From a virus, in IMG/VR virus record IMGVR_UViG_3300030104_000004, positions 1 through 25,946 of that record: a stretch of DNA of 25,946 bases, one strand, 5' to 3'. The position numbers and the translations under genes are program-made. Position 1 is the first letter of the stretch. Every line of letters begins with the position of its first letter. The notes under the pieces are model-generated. The model was not told the origin of the DNA. It did no database searches and worked only from the letters and a program-made list of their open reading frames with translations. Shown piece by piece: positions 3,725 to 8,361 of this stretch.

Positions 3725-4285
3725 ATGAAACTAAAAATCAACGAATTAAAACCAAACGAAAGCAATCCTAGAATAATTAAGGAAGCTAAATTTAAAAAAC
3801 TTGTAAAGTCAATTAAGGACTTCCCTGAGATGTTAGAACTAAGACCTATAATAATTGACGAGAACAATGTCATTTTAGGCGGCAATATGAGATACAAAGC
3901 GTGTATAGAAGCTGGTTTAAAAGAAGTGCCAGTTAAAATAGCAAAGGGCTTGACAGAAGAGCAGAAAGAGGAATTTATAGTTAAAGATAATGTAGGGTTT
4001 GGTGAATGGGATTGGGATATTCTAGGAAACCAATGGGATAACGCAAAGCTAGGCGAATGGGGTATGGATGTTTGGCAACCTGAAGAAGCAGTAGACTATT
4101 CTGTATTAGAAGACCTAGACTTAGGCTCAACATTACAAGACAAAGAAGCAGGGGTAAAAAGAGCAATACAAATAGAGTTCGAACCTGAGCATTATGACGA
4201 AGCCGTATTACTGATTAACACGGCAAGAAAGGAAGGGAAGAATGTAGGATTAATTGTTTTAAATGCTTTTAAGAATGACGCATAA
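3725..4285 (+). CDS. ParB-like nuclease-domain protein of the modification cassette
   Basis: A 186-residue protein whose first ~105 residues form a ParB/Srx-like domain. It opens with LKPNESNPRIIKEAKFKKLV, then LRPIIIDENN and the ParB box GGNMRYKACIEAG (52-64), and ends with FGEWDWDIL. In many phage proteins this domain precedes a DNA methyltransferase; here no methyltransferase follows. The rest is an acidic linker and a small alpha/beta C-terminus. The frame could extend upstream to 3638, but the ATG at 3725 aligns with family starts and directly follows the promoter-like motif. The downstream glycosyltransferase-like and TET/JBP-like genes point to a role in DNA base hypermodification, for example DNA recognition. 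That role is inferred. Confidence 0.82.
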   Translation: MKLKINELKPNESNPRIIKEAKFKKLVKSIKDFPEMLELRPIIIDENNVILGGNMRYKACIEAGLKEVPVKIAKGLTEEQKEEFIVKDNVGFGEWDWDILGNQWDNAKLGEWGMDVWQPEEAVDYSVLEDLDLGSTLQDKEAGVKRAIQIEFEPEHYDEAVLLINTARKEGKNVGLIVLNAFKNDA

Positions 4286-4955
4286 TGTATATGTAATATC
4301 AGCAGGGAGATATGATAAACTTCCATTCAACGAAGAACAAAAGAAGAAATATATCTTTTGCGTTAAAAATGGAGAAGGAGAATTATACAAAGAGAACGGA
4401 TGCTTGAATGTTTATGAAACAGGAAATTTGATGGATAGTAGAAACTATGCACTAGAACACGCTTTTAAACAAAAAAAGATATGCGTACAGTTAAGTGATG
4501 ATATAAAAAAAGTAGTAGTCAATAAGAATTTTGGTTGTCCTGCTAAAGTAGAACTTGACTTTGCTATTGAAGATATAGTTAAAAGGTTCAATGAGGTGAA
4601 AGGGGTTAAGTTATTAGGAATACCACCGACAGACAATTATTTCTTTGCCAATAAGATTGTAAGCGTTAATACTTTTTGTATTGGAGATATGTTATTTGTA
4701 AAACCTTCAGAAATTAGATTTGATACTCAGCTTACTCTTAAAGAAGATTACGACTTCACTTTACAACATAGGGAGAGGGGAGATGTTATAAGGTATCAGA
4801 AATACTTATTTACTTTTGAGCATTATTCAAACAAAGGTGGGGCAGTTGATGTTAGAGATGATAAAGAAGAACAGAAAAACATAAGAATACTAAAATCAAA
4901 GTGGGGAGATAAGGTAAGATTAAATTCTAAACGCAAAAATGAAATACTAATATGA
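4263..4955 (+). CDS. TET-associated glycosyltransferase-like protein
   Basis: A 230-residue protein resembling the TAGT group of small GT-A-like glycosyltransferases found beside phage TET/JBP enzymes. The N-terminal strand VYVISAGRYDKLPF is followed by NLMDSRNYALEHA (56-68) and KICVQLSDDIKKV (72-84). The SDD replaces the DxD motif that binds metal and sugar nucleotide. It would be expected to add a sugar to hydroxymethylated pyrimidines in DNA; the sugar and base cannot be read from sequence. An ATG at 4275 (MTHNVYV) is an equally plausible start with less overlap of the upstream gene. An ATGA overlap ties it to the dioxygenase gene. Confidence 0.78.
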   Translation: MLLRMTHNVYVISAGRYDKLPFNEEQKKKYIFCVKNGEGELYKENGCLNVYETGNLMDSRNYALEHAFKQKKICVQLSDDIKKVVVNKNFGCPAKVELDFAIEDIVKRFNEVKGVKLLGIPPTDNYFFANKIVSVNTFCIGDMLFVKPSEIRFDTQLTLKEDYDFTLQHRERGDVIRYQKYLFTFEHYSNKGGAVDVRDDKEEQKNIRILKSKWGDKVRLNSKRKNEILI

Positions 4956-5755
4956 AAACAATAAAACTGCAACAAGTAGAACACAATATTAAGATAGGTA
5001 AAGAATGCCCTTACTATGAACCAAACATAAAAGAAGATTGCTTATTAGAACTTGATGGGGAGATAATAGGGTTTTATATTAAAGATGTAACAAAGTACAG
5101 TAAAAAGCTGCAACAATTGATAGCAATAGCTAATAAAGAATTTAGAAGTGATAATGTGCCTAAAGCGGAAATGAGCAGAGGTCCGCAAGGAAACAAGCAA
5201 GATAAATTAAAAAGACAAAGAGAGGGTAAGAATTTAGTAACTCAGTTTAGTACTATTTTAGGAAGCAGGGCTCCTAAACCTCATATGAGAATGCCATACC
5301 CAAGTATCACTCCTGTACATAGAGAGCCAAAAGCTCAAACATTTATTAAGGCAATGTGGGGTGCTTGTTTAGAAGCAGAACAAATTATTAAGGAACTAAC
5401 TCCACATATTTATAAAAGACAAACAGAATTATTTGAAGATGTAAAAAAAGAATGGAGATTTGGTAATATGTACACTAGCAGCATATCTAATTTTAATATA
5501 GCAGCAGCTTTTCACAGAGATACAGGAAACATAGTAGGAACAGTAAACACAATCCTGACTAAAAGAAACAATGCTAATGGGGGTTGCTTAAATGTGCCTG
5601 ATTATGACGTAACATTTGAACAGGCAGACAACTCAATGTTAGTTTACCCAGCTTGGAAGAATGTACATGGAGTAACACCAATAAAACCAATAGCAGAAAA
5701 TGGTTACAGAAACAGTTTAATCTTCTATCCATTGAAAGCATTTAAAGGAATATAA
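4952..5755 (+). CDS. TET/JBP-like 2OG-Fe(II) DNA dioxygenase
   Basis: A 267-residue protein with the conserved core of the TET/JBP family, which oxidises 5-methyl groups of pyrimidines in DNA using Fe(II) and 2-oxoglutarate. The iron ligands are visible: H188 and D190 (AAAFHRDTGN) and H239 (WKNVHGVTPI). R253 (YRNSLIFYP) is the expected 2-oxoglutarate-binding residue. A family-type N-terminal segment, AEMSRGPQGNKQDK, lies at 72-85. All key residues are present, so the enzyme looks intact. It shares an ATGA overlap with the glycosyltransferase-like gene, which supports a two-step oxidise-then-glycosylate pathway. No cytosine-C5 methyltransferase or thymine-modifying partner is in the window, so the source of the substrate base is unknown. 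Confidence 0.85.
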   Translation: MKTIKLQQVEHNIKIGKECPYYEPNIKEDCLLELDGEIIGFYIKDVTKYSKKLQQLIAIANKEFRSDNVPKAEMSRGPQGNKQDKLKRQREGKNLVTQFSTILGSRAPKPHMRMPYPSITPVHREPKAQTFIKAMWGACLEAEQIIKELTPHIYKRQTELFEDVKKEWRFGNMYTSSISNFNIAAAFHRDTGNIVGTVNTILTKRNNANGGCLNVPDYDVTFEQADNSMLVYPAWKNVHGVTPIKPIAENGYRNSLIFYPLKAFKGI

Positions 5756-5756
5756 T

Positions 5757-6116
5757 ATGGACGAAAGTAGACACATAAAAAAGGAAAGCATTTTGAAGGC
5801 TTTAGAAAAGAGTTTAGGAGTGGTAACAGTTGCCTGTAAGTCAGCAGACGTTCCACGTTCAACATACTATAAATGGCTAAACGAAGATGAGGAATTTGCT
5901 AAACAAGTTCAGGACATTGAAAACATTGCACTAGACTTTGGAGAAAGCCAATTACACAAACAAATAGGAGAAGGCTCAACATCAGCTACAATTTTTTTCT
6001 TAAAGACAAAAGGAAAGCGTAGGGGATATGTAGAGAAGTCCGAGTTAGATATAACTTCAGGTGATAAGGTTATCAATATGCCTGTTATAACATTTGTTGA
6101 AACTGATACTGAATAA
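5757..6116 (+). CDS. terS: Terminase small subunit
   Basis: A 119-residue protein with an N-terminal HTH of the phBC6A51/terminase-small type: ILKALEKSLGVVTVACKSAD then VPRSTYYKWLNEDEEFA. A helical oligomerisation region follows, with GESQLHKQIGEGSTSATIFF and LKTKGKRRGY (about 61-91). The second part is characteristic of small terminases of this group. The protein would recognise phage DNA and load it on the large subunit. It starts 1 nt after the dioxygenase gene and overlaps the terminase large subunit by 23 nt, as expected for this pair. Confidence 0.85.
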   Translation: MDESRHIKKESILKALEKSLGVVTVACKSADVPRSTYYKWLNEDEEFAKQVQDIENIALDFGESQLHKQIGEGSTSATIFFLKTKGKRRGYVEKSELDITSGDKVINMPVITFVETDTE

Positions 6117-7305
6117 GAAATATAACCCCTTATTCAAGTCTGATGCTCGTTACTTTATAATTACAGGCGGTAGAGGTTCAGGAAAGTCTTTTGCTGTAAC
6201 AGTATTTTTAACTTTACTTACAATGACTAAAGGGATAAGAATACTCTTTACTCGTTTCACAATGACTTCAGCACATCTTTCAATTATTCCAGAGTTCTTA
6301 GAAAAGATAGGGCTGCTAGGGTTTGATGAAGTGTTTAGTATTAATAAAGCAGAAGTAGTTAATACAAGCAATAAATCAGATATATTATTTAGAGGTATAA
6401 GAACATCAGCTGGTAACCAAACCGCTAGTCTAAAATCTTTACAGGGTATATCAACTTGGGTACTTGACGAAGCAGAAGAATTAGTTGACGAAAATATCTT
6501 TGATACTATTGACCTAAGTATAAGAGAAAAGAACATACATAATAGAGTAGTATTAATATTAAACCCTGTTACTAAAGAACATTGGATATATAAACGCTTT
6601 TTTGAAGACAAAGGCGTAGAAGGCGGTTTTAACGGTTCTAAGGACAATATATGCTATATACATACTAGTTACCTAGATAATATTAAAAACCTCTCACAGA
6701 GCTTCCTAGAGCGTATTAAGAGCATAAAGCATAGAAACTTTAAAAAGTACCAGCATAAAATACTTGGGGGTTGGTTAGATAAAGCAGAAGGAGTAGTCTT
6801 TGAGAATTGGTCAATAGGTGAATTTAATCCTGATGGACTTCAGACATCTTGCGGTATGGACTTTGGTTTTAGTGTTGACCCAGATAGCCTTACAGAAGTG
6901 GCTATTGATAAAAGAAAACGAAAGATATATTTAAAAGAACATATTTATAAGAATGGCTTAAAGTCAAACGAACTAGCTAAAATCATATTAGACAAAGTAG
7001 ATAATAAACTTATCATTGCTGACTCAGCAGAACCAAGACTAATTGCAGACCTTAGACATTTAGGAGTAAACATCAAACCTGTAAAAAAAGGAACTATTGA
7101 AAGCGGGATAACTCGTATGCAAGATTATGAGATTATCATAACTCCAGAAAGTACTAATATAGCTAAAGAATTAAACAATTATATATACGCAGACAAAGGT
7201 TCTAAACTTTATGTAGACAACTACAATCACGCAATTGACGGGGTTAGATATAATGTAATATACCACCTAGACAACCCAAACGCAGGAAAGTATTACGTAC
7301 AGTAA
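6094..7305 (+). CDS. terL: Terminase large subunit (PBSX-like)
   Basis: A 403-residue packaging motor and nuclease. The ATPase half has Walker A GGRGSGKS (25-32), Walker B WVLDEAEE (122-129, with D125 and E126) and a coupling motif LILNPVT. The nuclease half has the RNase H-like acidic residues D256 (CGMDFGFS), D310 (IIADSAEP) and D382 (HAIDGVRY). The length and the motif set fit the PBSX/Terminase_3 group. No ATG lies near the expected N-terminus. The TTG at 6094 is the best start, inside the end of the small subunit gene. The protein appears complete and functional. Confidence 0.93.
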   Translation: MLKLILNKKYNPLFKSDARYFIITGGRGSGKSFAVTVFLTLLTMTKGIRILFTRFTMTSAHLSIIPEFLEKIGLLGFDEVFSINKAEVVNTSNKSDILFRGIRTSAGNQTASLKSLQGISTWVLDEAEELVDENIFDTIDLSIREKNIHNRVVLILNPVTKEHWIYKRFFEDKGVEGGFNGSKDNICYIHTSYLDNIKNLSQSFLERIKSIKHRNFKKYQHKILGGWLDKAEGVVFENWSIGEFNPDGLQTSCGMDFGFSVDPDSLTEVAIDKRKRKIYLKEHIYKNGLKSNELAKIILDKVDNKLIIADSAEPRLIADLRHLGVNIKPVKKGTIESGITRMQDYEIIITPESTNIAKELNNYIYADKGSKLYVDNYNHAIDGVRYNVIYHLDNPNAGKYYVQ

Positions 7306-7309
7306 GTTT

Positions 7310-7650
7310 ATTAGAATAAAATTGTTCTTAAAATAGTAGTGTCTGTCCAAAGTACTTCGTTTGCTAGCTCGTCCGCATACGGGATTACGATTTATTACCA
7401 ACCTTTTGAGTGTTTACATCAAACCTTTATTTGATGTGATAATACCACTTGCTTCGCTTCAGTATATATGCCTTCACAGAGCCTAATCCCACCGTTTAAT
7501 CAAGTTTAATACTTCGCCAAGTATTAAAATAATATTGCTATCATTTTATTTTATAAAGCGTCTAACTTTTTTAACTCTCGTCGCTAGGGTGCGCGTCTAG
7601 TTTCCTATATATCAGATTTCGTTTTCTACTATTTCAATGAACAATTATAG
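7310..7650 (-). ncRNA. Candidate structured non-coding RNA (~330 nt), family unknown
   Basis: No protein frame of credible length occupies 7306-7761 on either strand. Across 7321-7645 the ends are complementary: 7321-7327 pairs with 7639-7645 (ATTGTTC/GAACAAT) and 7331-7339 pairs with 7626-7634 (AAATAGTAG/CTACTATTT). Together these make a 16-bp closing stem with one small internal loop. Inside are a 10-bp hairpin (7505-7514 with 7519-7528), an 8-bp hairpin (7416-7423 with 7430-7437) and a long-range GGGATTA/TAATCCC helix (7381-7387 with 7484-7490). A Bacteroidota promoter on the minus strand points exactly at the 5' end of this structure. On that strand the closing stem is followed by a U-rich run. 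It lacks the tag-peptide and T-arm features of tmRNA. Function is unknown. The endpoints are estimates. Confidence 0.5.
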
Positions 7651-7652
7651 TG

Positions 7653-7683
7653 CAAAGATACACTTTTTTTTTAATTGTAACAA
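7653..7683 (-). promoter_or_regulatory. Bacteroidota-type promoter for the minus-strand RNA
   Basis: Read on the minus strand, TTG (7683-7681), a 20-nt spacer and TATCTTTG (7660-7653) fit the Bacteroidota housekeeping promoter (TTG at -33, TAnnTTTG at -7). Transcription should start near 7646-7650, the outer end of the closing stem of the candidate RNA. Confidence 0.6.
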
Positions 7684-7745
7684 TTATAAACAGAATTATT
7701 ACCAAAGTTATTAACAATTGAGGTGTTAAACTAAAAACAACAAAT

Positions 7746-7759
7746 TTCTATTATATATA
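7746..7759 (+). promoter_or_regulatory. Phage promoter-like motif, copy 2
   Basis: TTCTATTATATATA with the shared 11-nt core at 7747-7757. It ends 2 nt before the ATG at 7762, the first gene of the tail module. It lies back to back with the minus-strand promoter at 7653-7683, so this gap would be divergently transcribed by two promoter types. Confidence 0.55.
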
Positions 7760-7761
7760 AG

Positions 7762-8361
7762 ATGAAAGTAAATATTAAAAAAGAAGGTAAGGTAAAAAAG
7801 TTTAAACTTATTAGTAGTTGGAAAGAAGTAACTTTACAGAAGTGGCTGAAACTTATTGATTTTGAAACAGGTACAAAGACTGAAGAAGCAACAGAAACAA
7901 TAGCAGCGTTATCTAATATTCCTAAGCAGTTAGTAAAGGAATTAGCTTTAAAAGATGTAGCAGTATTAATGAGTAAAATTGCAGAGCTACAACAAAAGCA
8001 AGATACAAAGCTTAAAAGGATTATTGAAATAGATGGTATTGAGTATGGTTTTCATCCTGATTTAGATAGTATAACGTTAGGCGAGTATGCGGATATTGAA
8101 ACATTTATAAAGAACGGAATAGAAAAGCATTTAGCTGAATTGATGGCGGTATTGTATAGACCAATAAAAGAAAAGAAAAATGACATTTATATTATTGATG
8201 CTTATGATGGAAATATTCGGCTTAGGACGGAAGAAATGAAAAAGATGTCAGCAGAACAAGTGCAAAGTGCATTGGTTTTTTTTTACAATTTAGGGAGAGA
8301 ATTGTCAGCGATTTTGCCATTATATTTGATGGAGCGGCTGACGGAAATGCAGACGCAATAG
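7762..8361 (+). CDS. Tail assembly chaperone, zero-frame product
   Basis: A 199-residue protein of mixed charge and mostly helical. It opens SSWKEVTLQKWLKLIDFETG and contains a 'domain then short beta segment' layout (EIDGIEYGFHPDLDSITLGE), which I associate with tail-assembly chaperones of Bacteroidota siphophages. It has no enzyme motif. These chaperones coat the tape measure protein before the tail tube forms. The frame runs across a run of nine T residues at 8276-8284. A long conserved-looking frame continues in -1 from that point, so this protein is probably one of two products, as with lambda gpG and gpGT. It is the first gene behind promoter motif copy 2. Confidence 0.68.
   Translation: MKVNIKKEGKVKKFKLISSWKEVTLQKWLKLIDFETGTKTEEATETIAALSNIPKQLVKELALKDVAVLMSKIAELQQKQDTKLKRIIEIDGIEYGFHPDLDSITLGEYADIETFIKNGIEKHLAELMAVLYRPIKEKKNDIYIIDAYDGNIRLRTEEMKKMSAEQVQSALVFFYNLGRELSAILPLYLMERLTEMQTQ
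8276..8305 (+). promoter_or_regulatory. Probable -1 ribosomal frameshift site
   Basis: Nine T residues (8276-8284) place T TTT TTT in the correct register (8277-8283) for a canonical X_XXY_YYZ slip relative to the zero frame. One nucleotide later ACAATT (8285-8290) and AATTGT (8300-8305) can form a 6-bp hairpin with a 9-nt loop. The spacer is shorter than usual. A homopolymer length error in the assembly would be the alternative explanation. Confidence 0.6.

What the first reader, a model, noticed from the sequence alone, without database searches (positions are those of the whole stretch)
3725..5755. Compact DNA hypermodification cassette (ParB-like, glycosyltransferase-like, TET/JBP-like)
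Three overlapping genes encode a ParB-domain protein, a TAGT-like glycosyltransferase and a TET/JBP dioxygenase with all iron and 2-oxoglutarate residues present. The expected result is oxidised and glycosylated pyrimidines in phage DNA, which can block restriction. The ParB domain has lost any methyltransferase partner, and no C5-methyltransferase lies in the window, so the starting base and final product are open. The cassette directly precedes the terminase.
Basis: partly seen in the sequence, partly recalled or inferred. Interest (0 to 1): 0.66.

Follow-up and report, generated by a model that had tools for sequence, protein, structure and literature searches.

The report
Swappable DNA-hypermodification cassette in marine phages
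These sea-water viruses carry a three-gene kit that probably chemically decorates their own DNA to hide it from bacterial defences, and the gene that adds the decoration is exchanged so often between close relatives that the DNA coat is likely to differ from virus to virus.

Summary
The third is a TET/JBP dioxygenase: its model matches TET2 (Z 19.4) and NgTet1 (18.8), and the Fe/2-oxoglutarate residues are invariant in 51 homologues. The middle one is a GT-A-fold, TAGT-like glycosyltransferase. The first is a stand-alone ParB_N protein.

The order ParB > X > TET > TerS > TerL is conserved in marine phages. X is a swap slot: 90 of 110 loci have TAGT-like glycosyltransferases (10 subtypes below 50% identity), 12 a small P-loop kinase-like protein and 8 an FkbM methyltransferase. 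The replacement ends at the gene's edges while the flanks stay about 90% identical in DNA.

Thirteen relatives whose ends overlap (complete genomes of 28-37 kb) have neither a C5-cytosine methyltransferase nor a thymidylate-synthase/hydroxymethylase homologue. Related TETs sit beside an amino-acid:DNA transferase and a P-loop kinase, the machinery of the ViI-type thymine pathway, also in cultured mycobacteriophage Mithril. I therefore think TET hydroxylates thymine after replication and the slot enzyme caps the hydroxyl; here, glycosyl-5hmU, like base J. The substrate is inferred, not shown. The kind of system is known. The swap slot and the thymine reading are the new parts.

The parts
3725..4285 (+). 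Stand-alone ParB N-terminal-domain protein, 186 aa; constant upstream partner of the cassette
   Evidence: PF02195 E 6e-7; phrog_620 E 6e-25. Conserved upstream of the slot in nearly all loci.
4263..4955 (+). Slot gene: TAGT-like GT-A glycosyltransferase, 230 aa from the first ATG; probable start 4275
   Evidence: PF20691 E 4e-5, phrog_842 E 2e-11. AF2 pLDDT 92.3; best PDB matches are GT-A enzymes (GalNAc-T2 Z 13.5, chondroitin polymerase 13.4). Metal-binding D79 and D80 and a C-terminal E161 conserved across subtypes.
4952..5755 (+). TET/JBP-family Fe(II)/2-oxoglutarate dioxygenase, 267 aa
   Evidence: PF12851 E 2e-8; AF2 pLDDT 92.8, pTM 0.90; TET2 Z 19.4, NgTet1 18.8, CcTet 17.5, CMD1 16.9, AlkB/FTO at most 14.8; HxD...H...R invariant.
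4274..4936 (+). Exchanged segment: no DNA similarity to relatives with another slot gene, although both flanks match at about 89-91%
   Evidence: blastn of window against L001, L002, L005, L022-L024 and L040: matches stop at 4271-4278 and resume at 4937-4951.
5757..6116 (+). Terminase small subunit, constant downstream neighbour (landmark, not part of the chemistry)
   Evidence: phrog_4044 E 4e-8.
6094..7305 (+). Terminase large subunit (landmark)
   Evidence: PF04466 E 1e-30.

Best explanation
A compact post-replicative DNA-hypermodification cassette. ParB is the DNA-binding partner, either targeting or clamping. TET hydroxylates the 5-methyl group of a pyrimidine already in phage DNA, most likely thymine itself (giving 5-hydroxymethyluracil, as JBP does) rather than 5-methylcytosine. 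The product of the slot gene then caps the new hydroxyl, in this window with a sugar, giving a glycosyloxymethyluracil like base J. In relatives the same slot carries other sugar-transfer subtypes, a P-loop DNA kinase (alone or fused to an amino-acid:DNA transferase) or an FkbM methyltransferase, so the final decoration can be exchanged by recombination while the hydroxylation step is kept. The likely benefit is escape from restriction, including enzymes that recognise one particular modified base. Shown: gene identities, folds, catalytic residues, conserved order, clean slot replacement, and absence of C5-MTase and hydroxymethylase genes from complete relatives. Inferred: activity on DNA, thymine as substrate, the sugar, ParB's role, and the benefit.
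For: Fold and catalytic residues of TET and GT. Conserved order ParB > X > TET > TerS > TerL. Slot contents among 110 loci: 90 TAGT-like in 10 subtypes, 12 P-loop, 8 FkbM. Exchange ends at the slot gene's edges. Of 238 locus pairs with ParB at least 95% identical, 168 carry a different slot subtype. PF00145 is found in only 8 of 123 IMG/VR records, and in none of the 13 records whose ends overlap by 95-256 bp; nor is PF00303 found in those 13. Two of the 13 (G030, G036) carry the window's own GT subtype. AADT (PF18724, E down to 4e-23), a PLP-like enzyme and the P-loop kinase lie beside this TET family, with AADT-kinase fusions in the slot itself. One such genome, G072, is complete and has neither PF00145 nor PF00303. 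Mycobacteriophage Mithril has ParB-TET-AADT-kinase-terminase and neither family. The same AADT family occurs in ViI-like phages, where SFP10 has a PF00303 homologue and no TET. The 5hmdU DNA kinase is known to act on 5hmU in DNA (PMC7653180, PMC6449724).
Against: Methylophilales phage Melnitz has a C5-MTase beside TET and a P-loop relative, and 8 IMG/VR records with a TET do carry a C5-MTase, so a 5mC route exists in the wider group. The published enzymology of phage TET is on cytosine. A host methyltransferase could supply 5mC, and a C5-MTase outside PF00145 would be missed. The window lacks about 3.3-3.9 kb of its own genome. Active-site residues do not tell T from 5mC: the Asn three residues after the HxD Asp also occurs in TET2, from memory. 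No biochemical data exist for this family.
Confidence: 0.6

Rival explanations
1. Cytosine route: TET oxidises 5-methylcytosine, made by a host (or unrecognised phage) methyltransferase, to 5hmC, and the TAGT-like enzyme glycosylates it, as in the characterised phage C5-MTase/TET/GT pathway.
For: The published phage pathway uses C5-MTase, TET and glycosyltransferases (summarised in PMC12730594). TAGT of T6 acts on glucosylated hmC (PMC13216743). Melnitz has C5-MTase-TET together. C5-MTase is present in 8 of 123 records.
Against: No PF00145 in 13 complete relatives, nor in complete phages MED4-184, Mithril and Cr30. Host methylation would give sparse, host-dependent substrate, a poor basis for so widespread a cassette. 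AADT and kinase partners belong to the thymine branch.
Confidence: 0.27
2. The cassette does not chiefly modify the phage's own genome for protection: for example it marks packaging sites or concatemers near the terminase (ParB as the site-specific element), or modifies host DNA or RNA.
For: Fixed position next to the terminase in marine phages and in the mycobacteriophages; ParB proteins can bind specific sites (general knowledge).
Against: Frequent swapping of the final chemistry fits antagonistic selection better than a housekeeping packaging mark. Each slot class can modify a hydroxyl. AADT in the known pathway modifies phage genomic DNA.
Confidence: 0.08
3. TET makes 5hmU or 5hmC, but the slot enzymes act elsewhere (e.g. 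capsule, tRNA, capsid), and the neighbourhood reflects an accessory-gene hot spot only.
For: FkbM methyltransferases and GT2-like enzymes often modify sugars or surface polymers (general knowledge).
Against: The slot is always between the same two genes; the alternatives include a kinase fused to an amino-acid:DNA transferase, a DNA-modification enzyme; PF20691 is a family whose studied member T6 TAGT acts on DNA bases.
Confidence: 0.05

Closest known systems
Phage C5-MTase / TET / glycosyltransferase cytosine hypermodification (Burke et al. 2021, PNAS; paper not held, known through PMC12730594 and PMC11404850)
   Same: TET/JBP dioxygenase followed by glycosyltransferase acting on DNA after replication.
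   Different: No C5-MTase in the window or in 13 complete relatives; ParB instead; the transferase position is a swap slot.
Base J synthesis in kinetoplastids (JBP1/JBP2 thymine hydroxylase plus glucosyltransferase)
   Same: Predicted chemistry: TET/JBP-fold hydroxylation of T in DNA, then sugar on 5hmU.
   Different: Viral; ParB partner; GT-A TAGT-like enzyme; activity not shown.
Thymine hypermodification of ViI/M6-type phages (5hmdU, 5hmdU DNA kinase, amino-acid:DNA transferase; Lee et al. 2018, cited in PMC9599517)
   Same: Relatives of the cassette carry the same AADT family and a P-loop kinase.
   Different: 5hmU there comes from a nucleotide hydroxymethylase (PF00303 relative) before replication; here no PF00303 and a TET instead. 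The window itself has no AADT or kinase.
TAGT (PF20691), T6 beta-glucosyl-HMC-alpha-glucosyltransferase
   Same: Same GT-A family by profile and fold.
   Different: T6 TAGT adds a second glucose to alpha-glucosyl-hmC; here it would be the first and only sugar.
Mycobacterium phages of Coopervirus (Mithril, Hydro, Apex)
   Same: ParB-TET directly before terminase; no C5-MTase in Mithril.
   Different: AADT and Ploopntkinase3 follow TET instead of a single enzyme between ParB and TET.
Prochlorococcus phage MED4-184 / P-HS2
   Same: Complete cultured genome with ParB > X > TET (43.9% identical) > small gene > TerL, no C5-MTase.
   Different: Slot holds an FkbM methyltransferase (PF05050 E 4e-11) instead of a glycosyltransferase.

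Membership tests
TET/JBP dioxygenases (PF12851) | Double-stranded beta-helix closest to TET rather than AlkB/FTO | tested here: met
   Z 19.4 TET2, 18.8 NgTet1, at most 14.8 for AlkB/FTO.
TET/JBP dioxygenases (PF12851) | HxD...H iron triad and 2OG-binding Arg | tested here: met
   H188, D190, H239 and R253 in 51 of 51.
TET/JBP dioxygenases (PF12851) | Pfam curated cut-off | tested here: inconclusive
   34.1 against 34.9 bits, E 2e-8.
TET/JBP dioxygenases (PF12851) | Oxidation of 5-methylpyrimidine in DNA | not testable with these tools
   Needs enzyme assay.
TAGT glycosyltransferases (PF20691) | Family profile match | tested here: inconclusive
   Window protein 24.0 bits against a cut-off of 27.5, E 4e-5; phrog_842 E 2e-11; a 34%-identical slot homologue (L023) passes with 29.1 bits.
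TAGT glycosyltransferases (PF20691) | GT-A fold with metal-binding Asp motif | tested here: met
   Model matches GT-A enzymes at Z up to 13.5; D79 in 18 of 18, D80 in 17 of 18.
ParB_N proteins (PF02195) | ParB N-terminal domain over cut-off | tested here: met
   29.8 bits, cut-off 26.3.
ParB-methyltransferase fusions | C-terminal DNA methyltransferase domain | tested here: not met
   186-aa protein; matches stop after the ParB part of phrog_498 and PDLC03229.
Phage C5-MTase/TET/GT cytosine pathway | C5-cytosine methyltransferase in the genome | tested here: not met
   No PF00145 in the window (record incomplete), nor in 13 complete relatives.
Base J-type (JBP) pathway | Thymine as substrate, 5hmU as intermediate | not testable with these tools
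   Supported only by genome context.
ViI/M6 thymine pathway | Nucleotide hydroxymethylase (PF00303 relative) | tested here: not met
   None in the window or in long relatives.
ViI/M6 thymine pathway | 5hmdU DNA kinase and AADT | tested here: not met
   Not seen among the window proteins scanned; present in relatives. Kinship of the slot kinase to the ViI kinase itself was not shown (no match in SFP10).

The most novel reading that the evidence does not exclude
Abundant marine phages carry a modular post-replicative thymine-modification locus: one JBP-like TET makes 5-hydroxymethyluracil in DNA, and a single genomic slot is switched by recombination between enzymes of different chemistry (about ten sugar-transferase subtypes, phosphate, phosphate plus amino acid, methyl). 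A phage population then holds many alternative DNA coats, including a viral base J, much as bacteria switch surface serotypes.
Probability: 0.45. Interest if true: 0.82.

Novelty: new variant of a known kind. Interest (0 to 1): 0.62.

Why it matters
If TET in these phages acts on thymine, base-J-like chemistry exists in viruses and the family's substrate switch between T and 5mC can be studied. The slot would be a natural experiment in how phages change the chemical identity of their DNA to escape modification-specific restriction, and a source of new DNA-modifying enzymes. Cultured phages with the same logic (Mithril on M. smegmatis, MED4-184) make it testable now.

Tried and rejected
A 'queuine tRNA-ribosyltransferase' identity (label of phrog_6059) was rejected: the fold and residues are TET/JBP. 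'Terminase small subunit' for the slot P-loop protein (label of phrog_800) was rejected: it shares that PHROG with Mithril gp4, a relative of Zenteno07 gp7, which is Ploopntkinase3 (E 2e-78), and the slot protein is fused to AADT in some loci. My expectation that TET and PF00303 exclude each other failed: Caulobacter phage Cr30 has TET, AADT, a kinase relative and PF00303. Direct sequence search of PDB with the TET protein gave nothing. I could not show that the slot kinase is related to the ViI 5hmdU kinase (SFP10 negative). The 309-aa slot protein of L132 matched no Pfam or PHROG family. The substrate could not be read from active-site residues. Key papers (Iyer 2013; Burke 2021) are not held, so how much of the slot diversity they already described is unchecked.

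Full report
Observation. The three ORFs lie at 3725-4285, 4263-4955 and 4952-5755 and run into the terminase genes. Pfam, PHROGs and structure agree on ParB_N, a TAGT-like glycosyltransferase and a TET/JBP dioxygenase. The window is a linear 25,946-base IMG/VR record. Comparison with relatives shows that it lacks about 3.3-3.9 kb between its two ends.

TET. An AlphaFold2 model from 51 homologues has mean pLDDT 92.8 and pTM 0.90. Foldseek and VIA-align place human TET2 (Z 19.4, 246 residues, 3.5 A), NgTet1 (18.8), CcTet (17.5) and CMD1 (16.9) well above AlkB and FTO (at most 14.8). H188, D190, H239 and R253, plus N180, N182, N193 and N254, are invariant. Residues about 71-100 are poorly modelled and hypervariable among relatives; this may be a DNA-contact loop (inference).

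Glycosyltransferase. The model (pLDDT 92.3) is a GT-A fold; the best solved relatives are GalNAc-T2 and chondroitin polymerase (Z about 13.5). Two Asp of the metal motif and a C-terminal Glu are shared by subtypes only 17-34% identical. PF20691 is the family of T6 TAGT, a GT-A enzyme that glucosylates glucosyl-hmC in DNA (PMC13216743).

Swap slot. A scan of viral contigs with the TET protein gave 122 relatives, and an alignment scan gave 587 or more. In 110 loci with a complete slot, the gene between ParB and TET is TAGT-like in 90 (10 subtypes under 50% identity), a 138-163-aa P-loop protein in 12 and an FkbM methyltransferase in 8. A few have none (L119, L134) or an unidentified gene (L132). 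Against L001, L005 and L022, blastn similarity stops at 4271-4273 and resumes at 4937-4951, although the flanks match at about 87-91%; against L026, which has the same GT subtype, similarity is continuous. Among 238 pairs with ParB at least 95% identical, 70 share the subtype, 135 carry another TAGT subtype and 33 another superfamily; the superfamily cases I listed all involve one locus, L005. On a FastTree of ParB the subtype changes at least 50 times (shuffled mean 68.6) and the superfamily 17 times (shuffled 18.4), so the slot follows its neighbours only weakly. Recombination inside ParB or TET makes these tree counts approximate.

Starting base. PF00145 is absent from the window and present in only 8 of 123 IMG/VR records. 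Most records are fragments, so the strong evidence is that 13 long records have overlapping ends (95-256 bp) and are therefore complete at 28.4-36.9 kb. None of the 13 has PF00145 or PF00303. They include two with the window's GT subtype (G030, G036), two with the kinase (G002, G007) and one with FkbM (G080). Cultured complete MED4-184 also has neither.

Kinase and AADT branch. A separate scan with the slot P-loop family found TET in the fetched DNA of 59 of 75 loci, in 31 of them directly downstream; some of these loci had already been found through TET. In others the order is TET > PLP-like enzyme > amino-acid:DNA transferase (PF18724, E 2e-18) > P-loop, and in L144, L146 and L154 AADT and P-loop are one polypeptide in the slot itself. 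The complete genome G072 has TET, AADT and P-loop without PF00145 or PF00303. The AADT family is that of ViI-like phages, whose hypermodification starts from 5hmdU, a DNA kinase then phosphorylating it (PMC6449724, PMC7653180). SFP10 has a PF00303 homologue and no TET; mycobacteriophage Mithril has ParB-TET-AADT-kinase-terminase and no PF00303 or PF00145. The simplest reading is that TET supplies 5hmU from thymine. Cr30, with TET, AADT, a kinase relative and PF00303 but no C5-MTase, fits but does not prove it. Melnitz, with C5-MTase, TET and a P-loop relative, shows that the cytosine route also exists in distant members.

ParB. A ParB protein directly precedes the slot or TET in marine, Gordonia and Mycobacterium phages, and two tandem copies occur in L118, L162, L168 and L172. 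So it is a constant part of the system, not a remnant of a methyltransferase. Its role as a DNA-guiding partner is inference.

Verdict. The system is a new variant of known phage TET/GT hypermodification. Its distinguishing features are the exchangeable capping enzyme and the likely thymine substrate, both testable in cultured phages.

Noticed in passing
L144:6966-8459, L146:6942-8471, L154:6413-7921: Fusion of an amino-acid:DNA transferase (PF18724) with the P-loop kinase-like domain, directly upstream of TET.
   Followed up: partly
L162:2204-6795; L118:3058-8070; L168:3755-8489: Two tandem ParB genes, TET, PLP-like enzyme (PALP E 0.002 in L168), AADT (Pfam-tested in L162) and P-loop kinase: a five-component thymine-type operon fed by TET.
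   Followed up: partly
NC_025422.1 (Cr30), 47,732-60,681: Cluster with TET (annotated SNF2 repair protein), AADT, a weak TAGT match, P-loop kinase relative, cysteine dioxygenase and the CBASS inhibitor Acb3.
   Followed up: partly
MZ577097.1 (Melnitz), 4,010-8,090: C5-MTase, TET, an unknown 427-aa protein and P-loop kinase relative in one operon: candidate kinase acting on a hydroxymethylcytosine.
   Followed up: partly
phrog_6059 and phrog_800: PHROG labels 'queuine tRNA-ribosyltransferase' (really TET/JBP) and 'terminase small subunit' (includes the P-loop kinase family) look wrong and spread to RefSeq annotations.
   Followed up: yes
window:5168-5251 (TET residues about 73-100): Hypervariable, poorly modelled stretch of TET with several distinct allele types among close relatives; possible DNA-recognition loop.
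   Followed up: no
L132:9075-10004: 309-aa slot protein with no Pfam or PHROG match in a contig binned with a beta-proteobacterium; another possible slot class.
   Followed up: partly
L171:7200-8486: GP88-family domain (PF17338 E 7e-45) in one open frame with the P-loop kinase domain, downstream of a TET.
   Followed up: no
window:21812-23860: Portal protein lies about 14.5 kb after the terminase, behind tail genes; unusual order for a small phage.
   Followed up: no
window:37-408: ORF with a run of 12 asparagine codons.
   Followed up: no
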